A stretch of DNA of 64,000 nt from positions 62,001-126,000 of the forward strand of contig NZ_JARHUJ010000014.1 in NCBI RefSeq assembly GCF_029223285.1, given 5' to 3'. Of the stretch, positions 42,575 to 51,890 are shown piece after piece. Numbering within the stretch: position 1 is the stretch's first letter; the number at the start of each line of letters is the position of its first letter. The notes beneath the pieces were generated by a model, which made no database searches, was not told where the DNA came from, and worked only from the letters and a program-made list of their open reading frames with translations. The stretch is from Paraflavitalea sp. CAU 1676. GTDB lineage: Bacteria; Bacteroidota; Bacteroidia; Chitinophagales; Chitinophagaceae. The translations under genes were made by a program, and so were the position numbers.

Positions 42575-43435
42575 CTATGCTTGTTCAAGCTGGTGGTCGA
42601 ATGCTGTAGATACGGTAACAGATTTCCAGGCTTCGATCTCTTCTTTGATAGAGTTGATCTTGTTATAGGCCAGTTCATAAGCATCGCTGCCGAGGAACAG
42701 GTGCAGGGGAGGATTTTTGCTGGCGGCTACTTCTATGATGGCCTGTGCTGCCTTCACCGGATCGCCGAGCTGGTTACCGTTCATGATCTGTTGGTGAAAC
42801 TGTTGTGTTTCTCTTACTGACTTATAGGCCTCGATGGGCCTGGCAGGTACGCCCAGTGAGCTATCGGCCAGGAACTGCGTTCTGAAATAACCGGGAGATA
42901 CGATCGTGGCATGGATGCCAAACGATTTGACCTCTGCCGACAGCGCTTCTGTAAATCCTTCTACGGCAAATTTGGTAGCGCAGTAGATACCGAAACCGGG
43001 GAAGGCGCCAATGAAGCCGGCGATGGAAGAGATGTTGATGATATGACCCGATTGTTGCGCCCTTAAATAAGGCATTACTTTACGAACCATATTGAGCGTG
43101 CCAAATACATTGATGTCGAAATTCTTTCTTGCTTCCGCATCCGACAATTCTTCCAGGCTGCCTACCAGTCCGTAGCCGGCGTTGTTGACGAGTACATCGA
43201 TCTGACCGAAAAGGTTAACCGTTTCATCAAGGGCTTTTTGAATGCTGCCTTCATCGTTAAGGTCTACCTGCAGGGGCAGAAAGTGATGATCGGTGGTATC
43301 GACAGCTTTGATCAGTTCCTGCTTGTTGCGCGATGTAGCAGCTACGCAATATCCCTGTTCCAGTAATCGTTGTACGAGTGTGAGACCTAAGCCTTTCGAA
43401 GCTCCTGTTACGAGCCATACTTTAGGATGTGCCAT
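42575..43435 (-). CDS. SDR-family NAD(P)-dependent oxidoreductase
   Basis: The 286-residue classical short-chain dehydrogenase has the cofactor motif TGASKGLG (10-17), NNAG at 84-87, and catalytic Ser137, Tyr151 and Lys155 (YCATK). The substrate is unknown. Such genes often pair with an AraC regulator. Here an AraC-like fragment lies directly downstream, and the full AraC gene at 50982-51890 shares its promoter and operator sequences, pointing to joint control. Confidence 0.94.
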   Translation of the reverse strand: MAHPKVWLVTGASKGLGLTLVQRLLEQGYCVAATSRNKQELIKAVDTTDHHFLPLQVDLNDEGSIQKALDETVNLFGQIDVLVNNAGYGLVGSLEELSDAEARKNFDINVFGTLNMVRKVMPYLRAQQSGHIINISSIAGFIGAFPGFGIYCATKFAVEGFTEALSAEVKSFGIHATIVSPGYFRTQFLADSSLGVPARPIEAYKSVRETQQFHQQIMNGNQLGDPVKAAQAIIEVAASKNPPLHLFLGSDAYELAYNKINSIKEEIEAWKSVTVSTAFDHQLEQA

Positions 43436-43619: not shown

Positions 43620-46160
43620 ATGAAGCGATTGTTACCTGCTTTACTGCTCTTGCCTTTTATTGCCCATAGCCAGGAGGTACAGCCTGTTATATCGTCTGAA
43701 TACCTTGACCTGATCCGGAATGATAGTCTGCGATCAAAAAGCAGCCAGGGTGTCCAAACGGTATTCCGAAAAATAAGATCCAATAGTTCAGGATATTATT
43801 ATGACTATTCTCCGGTGAGAAAGATCCGTATCCGGAATGGTGTTGCCAACATCGTCTCTTATTCCAGGCAGGAAATACGGTTGGGAGGTTCTTTTACCAG
43901 TACAGCTGGTGTGAAGTGGGCTAATAACACGCCCGATCTTCAATCTGCCTACGCTCAGGGCAGAACGGTGGGAGGCAAATTACAATGGCGGGGGGCCGAG
44001 ACGGGAGAGTTATACAGTTACGGACCTCCACTGACAGCTCTTGAATATGACAATAGCATATATCCCTACGACGATTATGGCCGGCTGGTGCCTGCCGGTA
44101 CCGGTAGTGGTGTTAAGGCGCATGACTATGACAACAGTGTTTTACGAACCGGCTCTTTTTTCGAACAGGCGCTTACGCTGAGAGCCAGGTTTGTAGAGAA
44201 AGGATCCAATAAGATATGGACCAATGTGCGGCTGAAGAAAGTGATAGACAACCTGGTACTCAGCAGCAACCAGAACAAGACCGATGAGCTGATGGTCAAC
44301 CTGCATTCCTACGTTAAACAAACTTCGTTATTTGCGCAATATTACTCTATAAGGGATGATTTCTCCAATAGCAACCGGATCGGTTTTCTAAATAGAGCCT
44401 ACCAGCAATCGCTGCTCACACCCACTACCTTCGACAATGCACAAGGATATATCCTGGCCGGTGGCCAGAGAAGTTATAGCCCGCAGGGCGATAACCCCTG
44501 GTTTTTGTTGAAAGATAATGGCAATACTTACGGGCGCAACACGAACGGCGCCAGTTTCTCGGCCGATAAGAGAAATGGAAAATTCCGGTGGAAGATAGCG
44601 CCTTCCACAGAGCACACTAACCTGGGCACGCTGGAACAATACAAACCTGGTACTGCCTGGTATCCCTCAGGCACTACCGCCGCAAGGCAAAAGAAAGACA
44701 CCAGGTACAACGTCGCCGGCGAATTGGGATACTTTTGGAATATTAACCGGGGTGAAATGGCGGGCACTATTAATTACCTGTTCAGCGACAATAGGTCGAC
44801 GATAGTGTACACACCGGGTAAGGCCTACCGGTACCAACGCAGCGTCAACGACCTGTCCTTCGCCTATCGGTTCCGTAAATATTTAGGAGATGTGGAGTTA
44901 AGCGCGCAGGTAAATAACAAGATGTACTTTTCCAACACCGCCGCCCGCGATGCTTTTTTTCTTCCAGGTATAAATGCCAGTATAGACCTAAATGATAATG
45001 TCGTTGACAACCTGCGTATCAAATTCTCAGGATCTTTTAACCGGTTCAATAGCGAGCTGCCCATCGACCGCTCCATGGGGCACCTGGCGTTGTTGCAGTA
45101 CCCGGTAGCTGACTTCCTGCGTTATTTCCCGGTGATGGAGGTGGAAAGCTTCGATAAGCTGAAAGCGATCCGCCACCAGGAGTGGACCGGTAAACTTGAG
45201 CTCCGCCTCGATTATCAGCTGCAATTCTCTGCAGAAGTTTTCAGCAGGAATACGTATGACGATGTTTTCCCAATACTGAATAATGGAATGCTGCAATTGC
45301 ACAACATGGCCTCTCATAAGAATCAGGGATATGAATTTACCCTCAATTACCTGCAGGGGCGGCATGGCTACGGATCGAATGCCTTGCGCATCGATCACAA
45401 CCTGAGTTTCTTTACATACAACAATAAAGTGTTGAAGGTGCAGGATGGCCGGCAAATGGTGCCACTGGCCGGCTTCAGTAATGTGCACAAAGTGCTGGCA
45501 GCAGGAGAAGTACTGGGGGCCATCGCCGGCAATGCCTACCTACGCGATGCGCATAATAATATCCTCATCGGAAATGATGGCTATCCCCTGGCAGGCAATC
45601 AGTCCGTTGTTATCGGAAATCCCATTCCTGATTTTGTGATTAAATACAACCCGGTAGTTTATTGGAAACACTTCAGTCTTTCCGCAAACCTCGAGTGGAA
45701 GAAAGGCGGCGATATCTGGAATGGCACACAGGCCGTGCTGGATTACTACGGCCGTTCCGGAACATCGGGTGATGCCCGAAACACGGAGAATTATATATTC
45801 CCTGGCGTATTGGCCAATGGTCATGTGAATGACATTCCGGTAAAGTTTTACGACCCAACGCAACCGCTTGAAGCCAACCGCTGGGTTCGTTATGGATACA
45901 GTGGTGTTGCAGAAACGTATATTCAAAAAGGTGATTACCTGCGCCTCGGCAACCTCAGCCTGGTGTATAAGTTCCCAAATAATTATGGAAAGCCGCAGTT
46001 AACCCTGGGCCTTCATGGCGGCAATTTCATCATCTGGACTCCCTACAAAGGAGCCGATCCAGCCCAATTGCTGCTAGATCAGCCCAACACGGCGGGACTT
46101 GACTTCTTCAACCTCCCTTCTGCCCGTTCACTGGCATTCAATCTTTCCCTTCAATTCTAA
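43620..46160 (+). CDS. SusC/RagA-like outer-membrane beta-barrel lacking a TonB plug domain
   Basis: The 846-residue protein has a signal peptide (MKRLLPALLLLPFIAHSQ). It then goes almost directly into sequence that in SusC-type receptors follows the plug: PDLQSAYAQGR, YDNSIYPYDDYGRLVPAG and SFFEQALTLRARF. About 20 strand-like segments follow, and the chain ends in Phe (LAFNLSLQF) like an outer-membrane barrel. No carboxypeptidase-regulatory domain, no DGVP and no GANGVI plug motif is present. The missing plug occurs in the next gene, four bases downstream. The frame is open from 43485, but the ATG at 43620 is the one that gives a signal peptide. Confidence 0.9.
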   Translation: MKRLLPALLLLPFIAHSQEVQPVISSEYLDLIRNDSLRSKSSQGVQTVFRKIRSNSSGYYYDYSPVRKIRIRNGVANIVSYSRQEIRLGGSFTSTAGVKWANNTPDLQSAYAQGRTVGGKLQWRGAETGELYSYGPPLTALEYDNSIYPYDDYGRLVPAGTGSGVKAHDYDNSVLRTGSFFEQALTLRARFVEKGSNKIWTNVRLKKVIDNLVLSSNQNKTDELMVNLHSYVKQTSLFAQYYSIRDDFSNSNRIGFLNRAYQQSLLTPTTFDNAQGYILAGGQRSYSPQGDNPWFLLKDNGNTYGRNTNGASFSADKRNGKFRWKIAPSTEHTNLGTLEQYKPGTAWYPSGTTAARQKKDTRYNVAGELGYFWNINRGEMAGTINYLFSDNRSTIVYTPGKAYRYQRSVNDLSFAYRFRKYLGDVELSAQVNNKMYFSNTAARDAFFLPGINASIDLNDNVVDNLRIKFSGSFNRFNSELPIDRSMGHLALLQYPVADFLRYFPVMEVESFDKLKAIRHQEWTGKLELRLDYQLQFSAEVFSRNTYDDVFPILNNGMLQLHNMASHKNQGYEFTLNYLQGRHGYGSNALRIDHNLSFFTYNNKVLKVQDGRQMVPLAGFSNVHKVLAAGEVLGAIAGNAYLRDAHNNILIGNDGYPLAGNQSVVIGNPIPDFVIKYNPVVYWKHFSLSANLEWKKGGDIWNGTQAVLDYYGRSGTSGDARNTENYIFPGVLANGHVNDIPVKFYDPTQPLEANRWVRYGYSGVAETYIQKGDYLRLGNLSLVYKFPNNYGKPQLTLGLHGGNFIIWTPYKGADPAQLLLDQPNTAGLDFFNLPSARSLAFNLSLQF

Positions 46161-46164
46161 TCGT

Positions 46165-49100
46165 ATGCTGAGAACTATAACCCGATATGTTGCTGCCTCT
46201 TTCATCATAGCGTATTGTCTGTTGCCACTTACCGGCTATACCCAGCTATGGGATTATGCTTCCATGAAGGAAAAAGTTTACCTGCACGCCAACCATGTGT
46301 ACTTCAAGCCCGGTGAAACTGTTTTTTTCAAATGTTATCTCGTGGATGCCAGGACGCAAAAGCCATCGTTCCTGAGTAAGACGATTTATGTGGAGGTCAT
46401 TAACCCCGCGGGCAGTATCGCCCAGAAGATGACACTGCCGGTAACCGATGGCTATGCCGAAGGAGCCTGGAATTTTGATTCCACGGCCAAGGGGGGTATC
46501 TATAAGTTGCGGGCGTATACTACCTGGATGCGTAATGAAGAAGAGCGAACAATATTTACGAAAGAGATCTACCTGCAGAAACTGATCGCGCCAAGGATTT
46601 TGATGAAGCTCGATTTTGCGGCCAAAGGTTATGGGGCGGGCGATGAAGCGGTTGCTGATTTTTCCATGCGAAATTTAAAAGACCAGCCGATAGGTGCACA
46701 CGATATTGCCTACACTGTAGCTATCGGAGGTCAGACGGTCAGCACGTCGCATTTGAAAACGGATGCTCAGGGCCAGGCAAAGATCAGGTTTAGGCTTCCG
46801 CAGGACCTGGCCGTTAACGATGGTTTGCTAAACGTAACTGTTCAATACAACGCTTACACCGAATCGGTATCCCGCAGTATCCCGATCGTGTTGAATAAGA
46901 TCGACCTGCAGTTTTTGCCCGAAAGCGGCAATATGGTGGTGGGACTGCCAGCCATTATTGCCTTTAAAGCAGTCGATGAATATGGAAAGGGCGCCGATGT
47001 GAAGGGAAACATCGTGGATCAATCGGGAAATATAGTTACGGCATTCGAAAGCTACCACAGGGGCATGGGCAAATGTTTCTTTATGCCACAGCCCGGCGCT
47101 TCTTATAGAGCCGTGATCACGACACCTGCAGGCATCAGGGAGTCATATACTTTACCGGAGGCATTACCATCAGGGCTGGTTATGAACATCCTGAAAACGA
47201 AGTATACGGTTCAGGTGAACCTTCAGTCGTCAAAAGTGCAAATGGTCTCTCTATCAGCGTATTCACGCGATAGTTTGTATTACTCACAGGATCTGTATGT
47301 AAAAGGCAGGTCGACGGTGGAGATCGATCAGGCTGTTTTTCCCGCTGGCATTACAAGGTTTGAGGTAAAAGACCGCCGGGATCAATCTTTGCAGGAAAGG
47401 CTCGTGTTCATGCATGAGAACAAGGGTCTGCAGATTTCTCTGCATCCCAACAAGCAACTGTATGGACCACGCGAGAAGGTGCTATTGAAGATAAAAACAA
47501 CTGATGTCAACGATCGGCCCATTGCTTCCAATATATCGCTGGCTGTTGTTGATGACAAGTTGTGGACGCTGGCCAACGACAAGCAGCACAATATCCTTTC
47601 CTGGTTGCTCATGAGCTCCGAGCTTGCGGGCACCATTGAGGAGCCCTTGTTTTATTTCGACATCAACGAACCCAAAGCAAGCATGGCGCTCGACCTGGTA
47701 ATGATGACCCACGGTTACCGGTATTTCGACTATGTTAAGGAAGTGCAGGAAACCAAGAAAGTGAAATACCTGTTCGACCAGGGGCACGTGATCAGTGGCG
47801 TGGTGCTCGATAAGGGAGGCAAGCCATTACAAACGGCCGTCTATCTTGTGCGGCAAGGAGGACCACAGGAACTGATCCAATCATCTACCCGCCCCGACGG
47901 TTCGTTCCAGTTTACCAACCTGCTGCCCCGCACCGAATACAGCCTGTTGGCAAAGCCGGTGGAGAAGATGGGTAAACCGTTTATAATCGTGCATCGAAAC
48001 GGGATCGGACATACTCCGATACAGCAGCAAAATACTTTTCTTCGGCGCGAAGACAGGAACCTGCTGCCTGGCGCTGCGGTAACCGATGAACCGCTTGTCG
48101 GGGAAGTGAAACAATTATTATCCGCGACGGAAAACGTTCAGGTAATGGAGCTGGACCAAAAGCTGATGACCTCTTCCAACCTCAACGATGTAGTGGTCGT
48201 GGGATATGGGGCTATATCACAACGCATGCTTTCGACTTCCCTGCTGCGGATAAACAGCATGGAACTCTATGGCCCCATCTACAACGCATTGCAGGGCAGG
48301 GTGCCTGGCCTGATCGTTACGCCGCAATTCAATGAGGCGGATAAGTTGCGGATTTCCGTCCGTGGCATGGGATCGCTTACAGGTAGCCAGCCCCCCCTGA
48401 TGATCATGGATGGTGTGCCGGTGGAAGACTTCAGGTTGCAATCGATCAATCCCTCCGAAATATCTTCAGTAACTGTATTCAAAGACGCAGCTGCGATCGC
48501 TCTTTACGGAGCGCAGGGGGCCAATGGGGTTATAGTCATCGAAACCCGTAAATCGGGCATTGAATCGATCGTTGTCGATGTCACCAACTGGTACGCTTTT
48601 GGTATGGTCAGTATTAAACCACTCGAAGCAACGAGACCGGTTGTTCGGAAATTCTATGCACCTCAATATGTCACCACGCATACCGATGTTCGCGATGATT
48701 TCCGGGAAACCATTTACTGGAATGGTGTTGTTCAGACAAATGGGAAAGGAGAGGCTGAAGTGACTTTCTATAATTCCGATGCAACTACTACGTTCCGGAC
48801 TATTGCTGAAGGTATTGGATACAATGGATTGGCAGGTAGAAAAGAACATACCTATGCAGTGAGCGAGCCGCTGAGTGTGGACATTAAAATACCTCCGTAT
48901 TTCACCGTGGGTGATAAAGCGTTACTACCACTTGTCATCACCAATAACAGTGGAGCGGATATGCAGGTAACCATCGATCTCGGGATGCCTAAGGGCTTGC
49001 TGTTGCAGCCATTCGACTGTATTGCCAGCATAGGTAAGGATAGTGCCCGGCAGATCCTGGTGCCCGTAATCGCCAGCGACAAGGCGCAGGGATTGATCAG

Positions 49101-50703
49101 GGTGGTAGTAGAAGGCAATGGCCATAAACAGATCCTGTCCTGGCCGGTGCAGGTGAATCCGCAGGGCTTTCCTGTATCATTGGTTTTCTCGGGCGATAAA
49201 ACAACAGAGCATACTTTTCCCATAGCTTCTCCGGTACCATTTAGCTATCGAACAAACCTGAAACTGTTCAGAGAGATCGATGAGCAATTGATGGATGGTA
49301 TTGAGTCGATGATCAGGGAACCGTATGGTTGTTTTGAACAAACGTCTTCTACAGTATATCCTAATATGCTGGTAATAAAATACCTGCGGAGTAAAGGAAT
49401 GGCATCTGCCGAATTGGAAGCGCGGGCTATGAAATACCTGAGATCAGGATACAAACGACTGCTTTCATTTGAGACGCCGAAGGGTGGCTTTGAGTGGTTT
49501 GGTCACGCACCCGGGCACCTCGGGTTAACGGCTTATGGATTGCTGGAGTTTACCGATATGAAAGCATTTATCGAAGTAGATGAAAAGATGCTGGAGCGCA
49601 CCAAAGTATTTTTGCTGCAACACCGCGATACGCTGGCTGGGTTCAAACATTCCAGTCAAGGCTATGACAGCTTTGCGGGAATGTATAAAGATGTCGGTAA
49701 TTGTTATGTCGTATATGCCATGGCGAAGGCTGGTTATGGCCAGGAGGTCTTTCCCCAATATCAGGCAGCGGTACAGCGTGCATTAACCCTAAGGGACGGG
49801 TACATGGTAGCCATGATGGCGAATGCGGCGATCGCGATGAAACAACAACATGATTATCGCCAGTTGATATCGCTGGCCAACAAGCTTTACGAGGAAAACA
49901 GGTTGAAGGCAAATACCAGCATGGTTGGCTCCTACGGCGAATCGCTGAAGGTGGAAACTTATTCATTGTACGCATTGGCGCTGATGCACGATAAATTCAG
50001 TGAATTGCCAACCTTGTATGGCGTGCTGTCGGAAATACTAAAAAGAAAAAGTTACTATGGATTTGGCTCCACCCAGGGCACCGTGTTGGCCCTGCAGGCC
50101 CTGGTGAGCTACCATGAATTCAGAAAAAGGGCTGACAACGAAACGAAAGTACATATTACGCTTAATAAGCAAACCGTTGTGCCGGGTACCATGTCGCCGC
50201 TGTTGCTTCGTGCGGGTAAGAATGAGTTCTCTGTAAAGTATAGCGACGACAGCAGTTATATTCCTTACCAGTTTGAAGTGAATTACCATACACATATTCC
50301 TCCATCCAATGAAAAGACAGCCGTGAAGCTCTCTACTCAACTGGCAGATACTATTGTGCGCGTAGGCCAAACAGTACGCATGGAGATCGCCGTGACGAAT
50401 AAAGAGCAGTACGCTTTGCCCATGACGATCGCCAAGATCGGCATACCGGCTGGCCTCACCGTACAGCCCTGGCAATTGAAAGAGATCCTGGAAAAGAACC
50501 AGGTAGCCTATTACGAGTTGTTCGACAACTGGCTGGTGTTTTACTGGACATCTTTCGACGGGAACGAAACCAAAACGATCAACCTGGATCTTAAAGCAGA
50601 AATAGGTGGTAGCTATAAAGCGAAGGCCAGCAATGCTTATCAGTATTATACACCCGAGGAGAAGCATTGGGTGGAAGGATCGGCGGTTACGGTAGAGCCA
50701 TGA
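46165..50703 (+). CDS. Alpha-2-macroglobulin-like protein with an embedded TonB-plug module
   Basis: The 1512-residue protein has a signal peptide (ending near LTGYTQ) without a lipobox. An MG2-type domain comes first (about 35-130, VYLHANHVYFKPGETVFFKCY), then further macroglobulin domains. A carboxypeptidase-regulatory domain follows (about 541-600, ISGVVLDKGGKPLQTAVYLV), then a SusC-type plug (about 673-800: LNDVVVVGYG, ALQGRVPGLIV, MIMDGVPVED, YGAQGANGVIVIETRKSG). The A2M domain begins near 843. The thioester motif GCFEQ has Cys1056 and Gln1059, and alpha-helical thioester-domain repeats and a receptor-binding-like domain end the protein. It starts four bases after the plugless barrel gene. 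The two are probably one operon and may form one complex. Confidence 0.93.
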   Translation: MLRTITRYVAASFIIAYCLLPLTGYTQLWDYASMKEKVYLHANHVYFKPGETVFFKCYLVDARTQKPSFLSKTIYVEVINPAGSIAQKMTLPVTDGYAEGAWNFDSTAKGGIYKLRAYTTWMRNEEERTIFTKEIYLQKLIAPRILMKLDFAAKGYGAGDEAVADFSMRNLKDQPIGAHDIAYTVAIGGQTVSTSHLKTDAQGQAKIRFRLPQDLAVNDGLLNVTVQYNAYTESVSRSIPIVLNKIDLQFLPESGNMVVGLPAIIAFKAVDEYGKGADVKGNIVDQSGNIVTAFESYHRGMGKCFFMPQPGASYRAVITTPAGIRESYTLPEALPSGLVMNILKTKYTVQVNLQSSKVQMVSLSAYSRDSLYYSQDLYVKGRSTVEIDQAVFPAGITRFEVKDRRDQSLQERLVFMHENKGLQISLHPNKQLYGPREKVLLKIKTTDVNDRPIASNISLAVVDDKLWTLANDKQHNILSWLLMSSELAGTIEEPLFYFDINEPKASMALDLVMMTHGYRYFDYVKEVQETKKVKYLFDQGHVISGVVLDKGGKPLQTAVYLVRQGGPQELIQSSTRPDGSFQFTNLLPRTEYSLLAKPVEKMGKPFIIVHRNGIGHTPIQQQNTFLRREDRNLLPGAAVTDEPLVGEVKQLLSATENVQVMELDQKLMTSSNLNDVVVVGYGAISQRMLSTSLLRINSMELYGPIYNALQGRVPGLIVTPQFNEADKLRISVRGMGSLTGSQPPLMIMDGVPVEDFRLQSINPSEISSVTVFKDAAAIALYGAQGANGVIVIETRKSGIESIVVDVTNWYAFGMVSIKPLEATRPVVRKFYAPQYVTTHTDVRDDFRETIYWNGVVQTNGKGEAEVTFYNSDATTTFRTIAEGIGYNGLAGRKEHTYAVSEPLSVDIKIPPYFTVGDKALLPLVITNNSGADMQVTIDLGMPKGLLLQPFDCIASIGKDSARQILVPVIASDKAQGLIRVVVEGNGHKQILSWPVQVNPQGFPVSLVFSGDKTTEHTFPIASPVPFSYRTNLKLFREIDEQLMDGIESMIREPYGCFEQTSSTVYPNMLVIKYLRSKGMASAELEARAMKYLRSGYKRLLSFETPKGGFEWFGHAPGHLGLTAYGLLEFTDMKAFIEVDEKMLERTKVFLLQHRDTLAGFKHSSQGYDSFAGMYKDVGNCYVVYAMAKAGYGQEVFPQYQAAVQRALTLRDGYMVAMMANAAIAMKQQHDYRQLISLANKLYEENRLKANTSMVGSYGESLKVETYSLYALALMHDKFSELPTLYGVLSEILKRKSYYGFGSTQGTVLALQALVSYHEFRKRADNETKVHITLNKQTVVPGTMSPLLLRAGKNEFSVKYSDDSSYIPYQFEVNYHTHIPPSNEKTAVKLSTQLADTIVRVGQTVRMEIAVTNKEQYALPMTIAKIGIPAGLTVQPWQLKEILEKNQVAYYELFDNWLVFYWTSFDGNETKTINLDLKAEIGGSYKAKASNAYQYYTPEEKHWVEGSAVTVEP

Positions 50704-50785: not shown

Positions 50786-50828
50786 AAAATGCACCGGTTC
50801 GTTCGTAAGAACGGGCCGGTGCATTTTT
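50786..50828. terminator. Very strong terminator after the macroglobulin gene
   Basis: A 12-bp perfect stem (AAAATGCACCGG / CCGGTGCATTTT) continues through two T-G pairs into a 5-bp stem CGTTC / GAACG with a GTAA loop. T runs follow in the plus direction, and A/T symmetry would also allow it to stop minus-strand transcription from araC. Confidence 0.85.
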
Positions 50829-50981: not shown

Positions 50982-51890
50982 TCAGGCATTGCGGTAAGCG
51001 GTGGGTGTTATGGCTACCTGCTTCTTAAAAAAGTTATTGAAATGCGCCGGCTCTTCAAAGCCGAGGCTATAACTGATCTCCGATACGTTCCAGTTGGTAT
51101 GCTTGAGCAACGCCTTGGCTTCGGCGATCACGCGATCGAATATATGTTCGGAAGTTGTTTTGCCGGTTGTTTCCTTGATTGCCCTGTTAAGATGGTTCAC
51201 ATGCACCGCCAGCTGCTGGGCAAAATCATTGGCCGAGCGCAGGGTAAACCGTTGCGAAGGCGATTCGATGGGAAACTGCCTTTCGAGCAATTCCGTAAAT
51301 ACAGCCGTGATCCTTGCTTTGGCATTGGGATGCTGGTACAGGGCTTCGGCGGGCTGAATCTTCAGTGCAAAATGGATCAGCTCGGTGACATAGTTACGTA
51401 GCAGATCGTATTTGTATACATAATCTGAATTGATCTCTTCCTGCATCTTCTGGTAAATGGCGGACACCTGTTTGTCCTGCTCGGGGGTTAATGGGTAGGC
51501 GGGTTTACCACCGGGCGCAAACATGGGAAAGTCCTGTATGCTGCCACGCATCTTACCATTAAAGAAACCGTCGGTAAATATGCTGAAGTAGCCAGTTACG
51601 CCATCCACGCCGCAATCCCAGGCATAGGGTACATTGGGATTGAAGAACATGAGGGTAGTGCCCGACACTTCGATACTTTTATCGGCATAGTGGCAGATAT
51701 TGTTGCCGCGCATCATGGTTATCTTGTAAAATTCACGGCGGCTGTATTTAGCGGGTGTTCCATGGGGGCCGGTAGTGTCTTCAATCTTGAAAACATTGAA
51801 GTGTCCGATATCCTGCTTGAGGTTCTGCGGCAGGTAGTTGAATTTCTTTTTGTAAAACTCCTCTAGTGTTTCTGATTTCTCCAAAGTCAT
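50982..51890 (-). CDS. AraC-family transcriptional regulator
   Basis: The 302-residue protein has an N-terminal cupin-like ligand-binding half, a helical linker (YQKMQEEINSDYVYKYDLLRNYVTELI), and a C-terminal double helix-turn-helix (about 200-300). The latter contains FAQQLAVHVNHLNRAIKETTGKT, followed by IAEAKALLKHTNWNVSEISYSLGFEEPAHFNNFFKKQ. Its promoter region shares an operator-like 18-mer with the SDR gene 7 kb away, suggesting autoregulation and SDR control. The barrel/macroglobulin operon lies between. Confidence 0.95.
   Translation of the reverse strand: MTLEKSETLEEFYKKKFNYLPQNLKQDIGHFNVFKIEDTTGPHGTPAKYSRREFYKITMMRGNNICHYADKSIEVSGTTLMFFNPNVPYAWDCGVDGVTGYFSIFTDGFFNGKMRGSIQDFPMFAPGGKPAYPLTPEQDKQVSAIYQKMQEEINSDYVYKYDLLRNYVTELIHFALKIQPAEALYQHPNAKARITAVFTELLERQFPIESPSQRFTLRSANDFAQQLAVHVNHLNRAIKETTGKTTSEHIFDRVIAEAKALLKHTNWNVSEISYSLGFEEPAHFNNFFKKQVAITPTAYRNA

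What the first reader, a model, noticed from the sequence alone, without database searches (positions are those of the whole stretch)
43620..50703. Receptor split in two: plugless SusC barrel plus an alpha-2-macroglobulin protein that carries the plug
The sequence shows a SusC-like barrel with a signal peptide and no plug, followed after four bases by a 1512-residue macroglobulin-like protein. The second protein contains the missing carboxypeptidase-regulatory and TonB-plug module (about residues 541-800) and a CxEQ thioester motif (Cys1056, Gln1059). In ordinary SusC proteins these domains are one chain: regulatory domain, plug, barrel. The reciprocal gain and loss suggest the plug of the second protein closes the barrel of the first, tethering a thioester protein to an outer-membrane pore that might be TonB-gated. 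It could capture proteases or substrates, or export or display the macroglobulin. MG2 plus plug combinations may already exist in domain databases; the pairing with a plugless barrel is, to my knowledge, not described.
Basis: partly seen in the sequence, partly recalled or inferred. Interest (0 to 1): 0.88.

Follow-up and report, generated by a model that had tools for sequence, protein, structure and literature searches.

The report
Outer-membrane receptor split with macroglobulin
In scattered Bacteroidota an outer-membrane pore has lost its built-in stopper, and the stopper is instead carried by the gene next door, inside a protein related to the blood protein alpha-2-macroglobulin, near the site where such proteins normally carry the trigger that springs them.

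Summary
The window encodes a SusC-type barrel without a plug (43620-46160). Four bases later comes a 1512-residue alpha-2-macroglobulin (46165-50703) carrying a SusC plug, a Ton box and a CxEQ motif. I classified 90 related macroglobulin loci in Bacteroidota. In 84 the macroglobulin has the plug and a plugless barrel lies beside it. In 4 both are missing. In 2 the gene sits at a contig edge. None is discordant. A reverse search of 395 genomes with the barrel put its four best hits in the four that carry a plug-bearing macroglobulin. The barrel folds as SusC (pLDDT 90.5) and has no SusD gene beside it. The insert ends where human alpha-2-macroglobulin resumes after its bait region. Plugs enter barrels from the periplasm, so the macroglobulin body should hang under the pore. 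The best reading is a two-chain TonB-dependent receptor whose stopper belongs to a covalent trap. Plug insertion, TonB dependence and cargo are inferred. An evolutionary-distance test gave no plug-specific signal. None of the paper listings I searched described the pairing.

The parts
43620..46160 (+). Plugless SusC-type beta-barrel protein P0001, 846 aa, signal peptide (by eye), no NTE or plug by Pfam
   Evidence: AF2 pLDDT 90.5, pTM 0.86; Foldseek best hits are SusC proteins
43869..46157 (+). Barrel domain (from about residue 84 to the C-terminal strand)
   Evidence: DSSP of the model; TIGR04056 match at residues 530-846
46165..50703 (+). Alpha-2-macroglobulin with inserted SusC plug, P0002, 1512 aa, signal peptide (by eye)
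46243..47784 (+). N-terminal macroglobulin (MG) domains, about residues 27-540
   Evidence: MG2 Pfam hit 46-128; strand-rich model of residues 340 on; boundaries approximate
47785..47964 (+). CarboxypepD_reg-like domain, about residues 541-600
   Evidence: PF13620 at 543-596, below cut-off; same domain above cut-off in plugless relative L173
48013..48237 (+). Low-confidence linker, residues 617-691, on the N side of the plug
   Evidence: pLDDT under 50 at model positions 278-352
48181..48210 (+). Ton box, LNDVVVVGYG, residues 673-682
   Evidence: sequence; motif of this kind near the plug in 81 of 86 plug-bearing macroglobulins against 30 of 860 other stretches; compare DEVVVTG of Bt1763
48259..48555 (+). 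TonB plug domain, about residues 699-797 (Pfam Plug 705-789)
48697..49284 (+). Start of the second half of the macroglobulin body (A2M domain onward), residues 845-1040
   Evidence: PF00207 at 849-939; profile aligns from human A2M residue 729 on
49288..50112 (+). Thioester (TED) domain, residues 1042-1316
   Evidence: PF07678, 92 bits
49327..49341 (+). Thioester motif GCFEQ, residues 1055-1059
   Evidence: GCxEQ in 88 of 88 family members aligned
50341..50664 (+). C-terminal receptor-binding/MG10-type domain, about residues 1393-1500
   Evidence: PF17973 22.0 bits (cut-off 26.2); PF07677 22.0 bits (cut-off 21.7)
50787..50827 (+). Hairpin followed by T run, probable terminator of the two-gene unit
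   Evidence: read by eye in the sequence; not scanned or folded

Best explanation
A two-chain TonB-dependent outer-membrane receptor. Chain 1 is a SusC-type barrel that has lost its plug. Chain 2 is an alpha-2-macroglobulin with a SusC plug and Ton box inserted between its two halves, where classical macroglobulins carry the bait region. The plug of chain 2 enters the barrel from the periplasm, holds it shut and tethers the macroglobulin body beneath the pore. TonB binding the Ton box in chain 2 pulls the plug and opens the pore. Because plug and linkers lie in the bait position, pulling or cutting them is the likely signal that unlocks the thioester, so that whatever protein enters (a protease, bacteriocin or other protein) is bound covalently. 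SHOWN: the split, its conservation, the predicted barrel fold, the Ton box motif, the thioester motif and the C-side boundary of the insert. INFERRED: plug insertion, periplasmic topology, TonB action. SPECULATIVE: the trigger and the captured substrate. My confidence is 0.8 for plug-in-trans, 0.6 for TonB gating and 0.35 for a covalent trap of incoming protein as the main role. The figure below is for the two-chain receptor reading as a whole.
For: Plug and barrel occur together or not at all: 84 both, 4 neither, 2 cut by contig ends, 0 discordant, of 90 loci. In 394 genomes of the family, 23 hold the macroglobulin and 22 the barrel, the same 22; the 23rd, G001, is a remnant. In a second family 11 of 299 genomes have the macroglobulin and all 11 are paired. 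Across the phylum (395 genomes) the four best barrel hits lie in the four genomes with plug-bearing macroglobulins. The barrel models as SusC. 0 of 55 barrels match Pfam Plug and 50 match TIGR04056. There is a Ton-box-like motif in 81 of 86 macroglobulins and, under a stricter pattern, in 0 of 84 barrel N-termini. Alignment to human A2M resumes at residue 729. A SusC barrel can stand without its plug in vitro (PMC7782687, passages).
Against: No two-chain model or experiment shows the plug inside the barrel. In a distance-correlation test the plug had no excess correlation with the barrel (partial r 0.07 in 42 pairs mostly of Chitinophagaceae, -0.10 in 31 mostly of Flavobacteriaceae); MG1-3 (0.21, 0.38), MG4-6 (0.44, 0.34), the CarboxypepD_reg part (0.31, 0.18) and MG7-CUB (0.19, 0.27) all scored higher. 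The plug models only at moderate confidence, pLDDT about 54-73 by ten-residue blocks. Only the C-side boundary of the insert was aligned to human A2M; Pfam's 'bait region domain' (PF07703) in the plugless relatives L173 and L176 ends before the CarboxypepD_reg domain, so the N-side correspondence is open. Short (about 800 aa) MG2 proteins have a degenerate plug-like stretch and no plugless barrel beside them in the 8 regions examined. No SusD lid is adjacent. Thioester reactivity, TonB dependence and cargo are untested.
Confidence: 0.72

Rival explanations
1. A nutrient importer of the ordinary kind, in which the macroglobulin body is only a periplasmic receiver or scaffold. The plug gates import of peptides or proteins, and the thioester domain holds or protects the imported cargo or guards against proteases that slip in.
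For: The nearest solved folds are SusC proteins: BT2264 first, then Bt1763 and other SusC proteins, then RagA; [quoted passage not shown] Sigma-70 and FecR genes directly upstream in L071, and a sigma gene plus an anti-sigma-like gene in L163 and L158, resemble the regulation of nutrient receptors.
Against: SusD was found in the flanks of 1 of 80 loci, against 21 of 26 loci of ordinary SusC-type hits. Neighbouring genes fall into many small clusters, the largest upstream one in 10 of 80 loci. The sigma/anti-sigma arrangement was noticed in 3 loci; it was not searched for systematically.
Confidence: 0.3
2. An export or display route: the macroglobulin leaves the cell through the barrel and remains capped there by its plug, presenting the thioester body outside.
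For: A TonB-dependent transporter (Oar) is needed to secrete the protease PopC in Myxococcus (PMC6434023, abstract and outline).
Against: Plug domains enter barrels from the periplasmic side and both their ends are periplasmic (general knowledge of the fold). Large folded parts flank the plug on both sides. A lipobox is not a family feature: pattern scans flagged 3 of 90 N-terminal stretches (for many rows the stretch taken may miss the true start) and 2 of 88, and not the window; L123 could be real.
Confidence: 0.07
3. The plug is a domain-swapped ornament: it lost its gating role and now serves only as bait sequence or as a docking module, and the adjacent barrel works with another plug or as an open or loop-closed pore.
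For: No plug-specific distance correlation with the barrel. Degenerate plug-like stretches in the short MG2 family.
Against: Joint presence and absence of plug and barrel in 90 loci without an exception in full view. The plug keeps the SusC signature (TIGR04057, 48.7 bits over a 46.2 cut-off) and a Ton box motif. An unplugged SusC-sized barrel would be costly to keep (inference).
Confidence: 0.12
4. A chance gene order, mis-assembly or pseudogene pair.
For: A few broken or decayed copies exist (L136, L101, G001 remnant).
Against: The order recurs in 84 of 90 loci from several families, most with intact frames.
Confidence: 0.01

Closest known systems
SusC/RagA TonB-dependent transporters (TIGR04056; Bt1763, BT2264, RagA)
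   Same: Barrel fold (Foldseek TMq 0.71-0.73 to BT2264); plug and Ton box sequences are SusC-type
   Different: Plug and Ton box are on another polypeptide; no SusD beside it; in the window no N-terminal extension either
Alpha-2-macroglobulin superfamily, thioester type (human A2M, A2ML1, CD109; E. coli ECAM/YfhM)
   Same: MG2, A2M and TED domains with GCxEQ; overall fold, with higher TM-scores to native than to activated structures
   Different: A CarboxypepD_reg domain, a Ton box and a SusC plug lie between the two halves of the body; the gene partner is a barrel, not PBP1c as in the common bacterial class (PMC3328433, passages)
Plugless Bacteroidota macroglobulins (L173, L175, L176, L200; G028, G033)
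   Same: Same body and GCxEQ; CarboxypepD_reg domain in L173 and L176
   Different: Low-complexity linker (judged by eye) instead of plug; no barrel beside L173, L175, L176, L200 and no barrel match in the genomes G028 and G033. L175 comes from a MAG labelled Proteobacteria
Short MG2 proteins of about 800 aa in the same genomes
   Same: Plug-like stretch and the first part of the A2M domain in the same order; MG2 by Pfam in the two tested, in one below cut-off
   Different: No thioester domain and no Pfam Plug in the two tested; no plugless barrel partner in the 8 regions examined
FhuA plug and barrel expressed as separate chains in the laboratory
   Same: Plug supplied in trans
   Different: Engineered; here natural and fused to a thioester protein

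Membership tests
SusC/RagA TonB-dependent transporter | SusC-type barrel of 22 strands | tested here: met
   Model pLDDT 90.5; best PDB matches are SusC proteins; the strands were not counted exactly
SusC/RagA TonB-dependent transporter | TIGR04056 score over the curated cut-off | tested here: not met
   84.3 bits and 133.1 bits for the two chains, cut-off 368.25
SusC/RagA TonB-dependent transporter | Plug domain in the same chain | tested here: not met
   No Pfam Plug in the window barrel nor in any of the 55 barrels scanned; it is in the partner chain
SusC/RagA TonB-dependent transporter | N-terminal extension PF13715 | tested here: not met
   No match in the window barrel; present in 19 of 55 barrels
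SusC/RagA TonB-dependent transporter | Neighbouring SusD lipoprotein | tested here: not met
   Found in 1 of 80 loci, at the far end of the locus; control 21 of 26 ordinary SusC-type loci; three seed proteins, so sensitivity is limited
TonB-dependent receptor (function) | Ton box | tested here: met
   By motif only, in the partner chain: LNDVVVV in P0002; 81 of 86 family members
TonB-dependent receptor (function) | Energy from TonB-ExbBD | not testable with these tools
   Needs mutants
Thioester alpha-2-macroglobulin | MG domains, A2M domain and TED | tested here: met
   Pfam over cut-off for MG2, A2M, TED; Foldseek
Thioester alpha-2-macroglobulin | CxEQ thioester motif | tested here: met
   GCFEQ 1055-1059; 88 of 88 relatives aligned
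Thioester alpha-2-macroglobulin | Protease-sensitive bait region between the two halves | tested here: inconclusive
   The place before the A2M domain holds low-confidence linkers and the plug; N-side boundary not aligned; protease sensitivity untested
Thioester alpha-2-macroglobulin | Protease trapping | not testable with these tools
   Needs biochemistry

The most novel reading that the evidence does not exclude
A mechanically sprung covalent trap. The bait region of a macroglobulin has been replaced by the TonB-pulled plug of an outer-membrane receptor, so that force from the inner membrane, or an invader dragging the plug, rather than bait cleavage, exposes the thioester and captures the incoming protein as it emerges from the pore. 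It would be a complement-like sentry built into a gate.
Probability: 0.22. Interest if true: 0.95.

Novelty: new variant of a known kind. Interest (0 to 1): 0.82.

Why it matters
No natural TonB-dependent receptor whose plug is a separate gene product appeared in the search listings seen here. The pair would let plug insertion, ejection and return be studied on two separable chains; for SusC transporters the reset step is described as unclear (PMC7782687, passages). It also links the complement/macroglobulin superfamily to the outer-membrane gate, and gives a testable case in which force rather than proteolysis could trigger a thioester.

Tried and rejected
Chance or assembly artefact: rejected by recurrence. 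Part of the Bacteroidota BAM complex: I suspected BamM or BamG, but PMC12611786 (passages) describes BamM as a two-domain surface lipoprotein with a PPI fold and BamG as a transmembrane outer-membrane protein, and the word macroglobulin does not occur in it; two of 55 barrels match NCBIfam BamP weakly (best E 5.1e-6), which I did not follow. A hit named 'TonB-dependent receptor plug' in a Riemerella screen (PMC7881567, passages) is listed with CirA and SusC domains and is not evidence on this pair. Surface lipoprotein macroglobulin: pattern scans flagged 3 of 90 and 2 of 88, not the window. A first plug tree had only two SusC rows and was redone with 25. Bacteroidota-type promoter motif (recalled consensus): no site upstream of the pair, and 3 matches in the window against 2.31 expected. 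Distance-correlation test for plug-barrel coupling: negative for the plug. A first, narrower Ton-box scan found 47 of 86; I widened window and pattern after seeing its misses, and the wider scan found 81 of 86. The PDB-VIA comparison was not available.
Full report
WHAT IS THERE. On the + strand the window has two genes four bases apart: P0001 (43620-46160, 846 aa) and P0002 (46165-50703, 1512 aa). Their flanking genes point the other way (an SDR-type gene at 42575-43435 and an AraC-type gene at 50982-51890, both minus strand; the names come from reading the sequence). A hairpin with a T run follows at 50787-50827 (by eye). So they look like a free-standing two-gene unit. P0001 has no Pfam match, but its residues 530-846 match TIGR04056 (SusC) positions 670-981. 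P0002 residues 670-843 match positions 75-252 of the same model. P0002 also has MG2, Plug, A2M and TED domains, a CarboxypepD_reg match below cut-off, and GCFEQ at 1055-1059.

IT IS A CONSERVED SPLIT. I used a profile of the C-terminal macroglobulin body, which does not contain the plug (A1: four plug-bearing and two plugless sequences). In 394 genomes of the window's family it found 23 genomes at E 1e-100. A profile of four plugless barrels (A2) found 22 genomes at E 1e-90, the same genomes except G001. G001 has only the last part of the macroglobulin between the same two neighbours, which looks like a deletion scar. In 21 of the 22 the two genes lie on one contig next to each other; in G166 they lie on two contigs. 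A GTDB scan with A1 gave 392 relatives, of which the best 80 were returned. I classified those 80, the window and 9 other loci with my own plug, barrel and macroglobulin profiles. Of 90 loci, 84 have the plug in the macroglobulin and a barrel without plug upstream on the same strand. Four have neither (L173, L175, L176, L200). Two have the plug, but the gene begins at the contig edge (L097, L103). None is discordant. Of the 84, one barrel is cut by a contig end (L110), one is split over two frames (L101), one pair is decayed (L136), and one pair has about 1.2 kb between the genes (L118). The 312 more distant relatives were not seen, and related sequences are not independent.

UNBIASED CHECKS. 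In 299 genomes of a second family, that of G627, 11 hold the macroglobulin at E 1e-60. Nine newly fetched stretches and two seen earlier (L201, L202) are all paired: 11 of 11. In 395 genomes drawn across the phylum, five hold the macroglobulin: four with plug and barrel, and one (G535, L200) with neither. In reverse, a 73-barrel profile (it includes the window's barrel) searched over 395 genomes of the phylum found matches in 145 genomes at E 1e-40. The four best are in exactly the four paired genomes, in frames of 901-958 aa (the one in G611 runs over one stop). Every other listed match lies in a frame of 974 aa or more, apart from two of 453 and 540 aa. Only two candidates per genome were scored, the list was cut, and frame length is only a proxy for holding a plug. 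The next two by score (L233, L234) were checked: each has its own plug, and a SusD-like gene beside it.

THE BARREL. Pfam on 55 barrels: Plug in 0, CarbopepD_reg_2 in 19; NCBIfam SusC in 50 of 55. Of eight barrels scanned singly (L138, L139, L145, L152, L153, L154, L163, L169), seven have this N-terminal SusC domain and none has a Plug match. So in such barrels the domain is kept and only the plug is missing, while in the window both are gone. A search of 84 barrels with HMMER's filters off and my plug profile gave at best 10 bits (L152). AlphaFold2 with 73 rows gives a barrel at mean pLDDT 90.5, pTM 0.86, with the first 62 residues largely of low confidence. Foldseek ranks SusC BT2264, then Bt1763 (including the plugless crystal form 5t3r) and other SusC proteins, then RagA. 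No SusD gene is adjacent: 1 hit in 80 loci, at the far end of L120, against 21 of 26 ordinary SusC-type loci with only about 1.5 kb flanks (three SusD seeds, so sensitivity is limited).

THE MACROGLOBULIN. All 88 aligned family members keep GCxEQ (L097 and L136 were left out as cut). Residues 340-1512 model at pLDDT 77.3, pTM 0.58. The linker 617-691 before the plug is of very low confidence, the one after it (about 796-829) partly so, and the plug itself is moderate (blocks of 54-73). Foldseek finds human A2ML1, A2M, CD109 and complement proteins; native A2M-type structures score TMq 0.42-0.45, and several activated ones 0.21-0.23. A Ton-box-like motif lies near the start of the plug in 81 of 86 plug-bearing members, against 30 of 860 other stretches of the same proteins (pattern and window were widened after a first scan gave 47 of 86). 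The window's is LNDVVVVGYG, and the one tested by mutation in Bt1763 is DEVVVTG (PMC7782687, passages). Barrel N-termini have none under a stricter pattern, 0 of 84.

THE BAIT SITE. In the profile alignment human A2M (6tav, 1474-residue chain) resumes at residue 729. The bait region is annotated at about 690-728 (recalled). Plugless relatives have, at the same place, a low-complexity linker (by eye). The N-side boundary could not be aligned. Pfam's 'bait region domain' PF07703 in plugless L173 and L176 ends at residues 493 and 519, before the CarboxypepD_reg domain, so the insert lies between that domain and the A2M domain. PMC9352918 (abstract and outline) shows that A2M is triggered when the cleaved bait region retracts from a central channel, and that a bait lengthened by opening disulfide loops, without a break, stayed native. 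A segment that TonB can pull, placed there, suggests force as a trigger; this is inference, and the last finding counts somewhat against it.

EVOLUTION. In a plug tree (59 rows) the 34 macroglobulin plugs and 25 SusC plugs fall on two sides of one branch (91/99, bootstrap not settled). In a barrel tree the 34 plugless barrels are one side (SH-aLRT 100, quick method). One origin of the split is therefore not excluded, though only 34 pairs and 25 SusC proteins were used. Presence is patchy (23 of 394, 11 of 299, 5 of 395), and loss is visible (G001, L136).

HOW IT PROBABLY WORKS. Plug insertion from the periplasm is the rule for this fold, and both plug ends are then periplasmic, so the macroglobulin body should hang under the pore (general knowledge). 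A lipobox is not a family feature. SusC barrels without plug have been seen in crystals and by cryo-EM, an expulsion that its authors think non-physiological (PMC7782687, passages). TonB pulling is mechanically sufficient to open a channel in BtuB (PMC5413942, abstract and outline). I therefore commit to a two-chain TonB-gated receptor. For the function I prefer a trap for proteins that enter through the gate, at low confidence; an importer with a protective receiver is the main rival.

RESULTS AGAINST. The plug's evolutionary distances do not follow the barrel's beyond the rest of the chain (partial r 0.07 and -0.10), whereas MG4-6 (0.44, 0.34), MG1-3 (0.21, 0.38), the CarboxypepD_reg part (0.31, 0.18) and MG7-CUB (0.19, 0.27) do more; TED is negative (-0.21, -0.42). 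The plug is short and fast-changing, so power is low, but the result may also mean that MG domains touch the barrel. Short MG2 proteins carry a degenerate plug-like stretch at the same site without a plugless barrel beside them in the eight regions examined.

LITERATURE. Five full-text searches of the held open-access library returned no listed title or abstract start that describes a macroglobulin with a TonB plug or this pairing; for I saw 20 of 37 and 25 of 36 papers. The search for TonB, 'plug domain' and 'alpha-2-macroglobulin' together returned no paper. Subscription papers and preprints were not searched.

Noticed in passing
L072:7086-8459 (G001:C1): Remnant of the macroglobulin (thioester domain onward) between the same SDR and AraC neighbours: the pair seems to have been deleted in a congener of the window's organism.
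   Followed up: partly
L163:3004-4536 and L158:2801-4336: A sigma-70-type gene (Pfam-confirmed in L163) and a 333-334 aa anti-sigma-like gene (named by eye) lie directly upstream of the pair; the second ends in a short stretch resembling the tail of a SusC plug (30-31 bits in my profile, no relevant Pfam match in L163).
   Followed up: partly
L071:5759-7503: Sigma-70 and FecR genes (Pfam) directly upstream of the pair, as in iron or nutrient receptor regulation.
   Followed up: partly
L075-L082: Five MG2-type proteins of about 760-850 aa in the window's own genome (L075-L079), and three in relatives, end just inside the A2M domain, with a degenerate plug-like stretch before it: a truncated relative of unknown role. 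Pfam was run on two of the eight.
   Followed up: partly
G000 whole genome: 150 Plug-domain matches in one 8.8 Mb genome (150 of 191 candidates were scored).
   Followed up: no
L099, L101, L104, L134, upstream of the barrel: In Niastella-type loci a protein resembling PorP/SprF (named from the sequence, not tested) precedes the pair.
   Followed up: no
Plug tree: L099 with L102, L133, L135: The plug of a Niastella locus groups with Chitinophaga plugs (97/94); plugs may have been exchanged between loci.
   Followed up: no
Alignment A5 scan: Two of 55 barrels match the NCBIfam BamP model weakly (best E 5.1e-6); which two is not shown.
   Followed up: no
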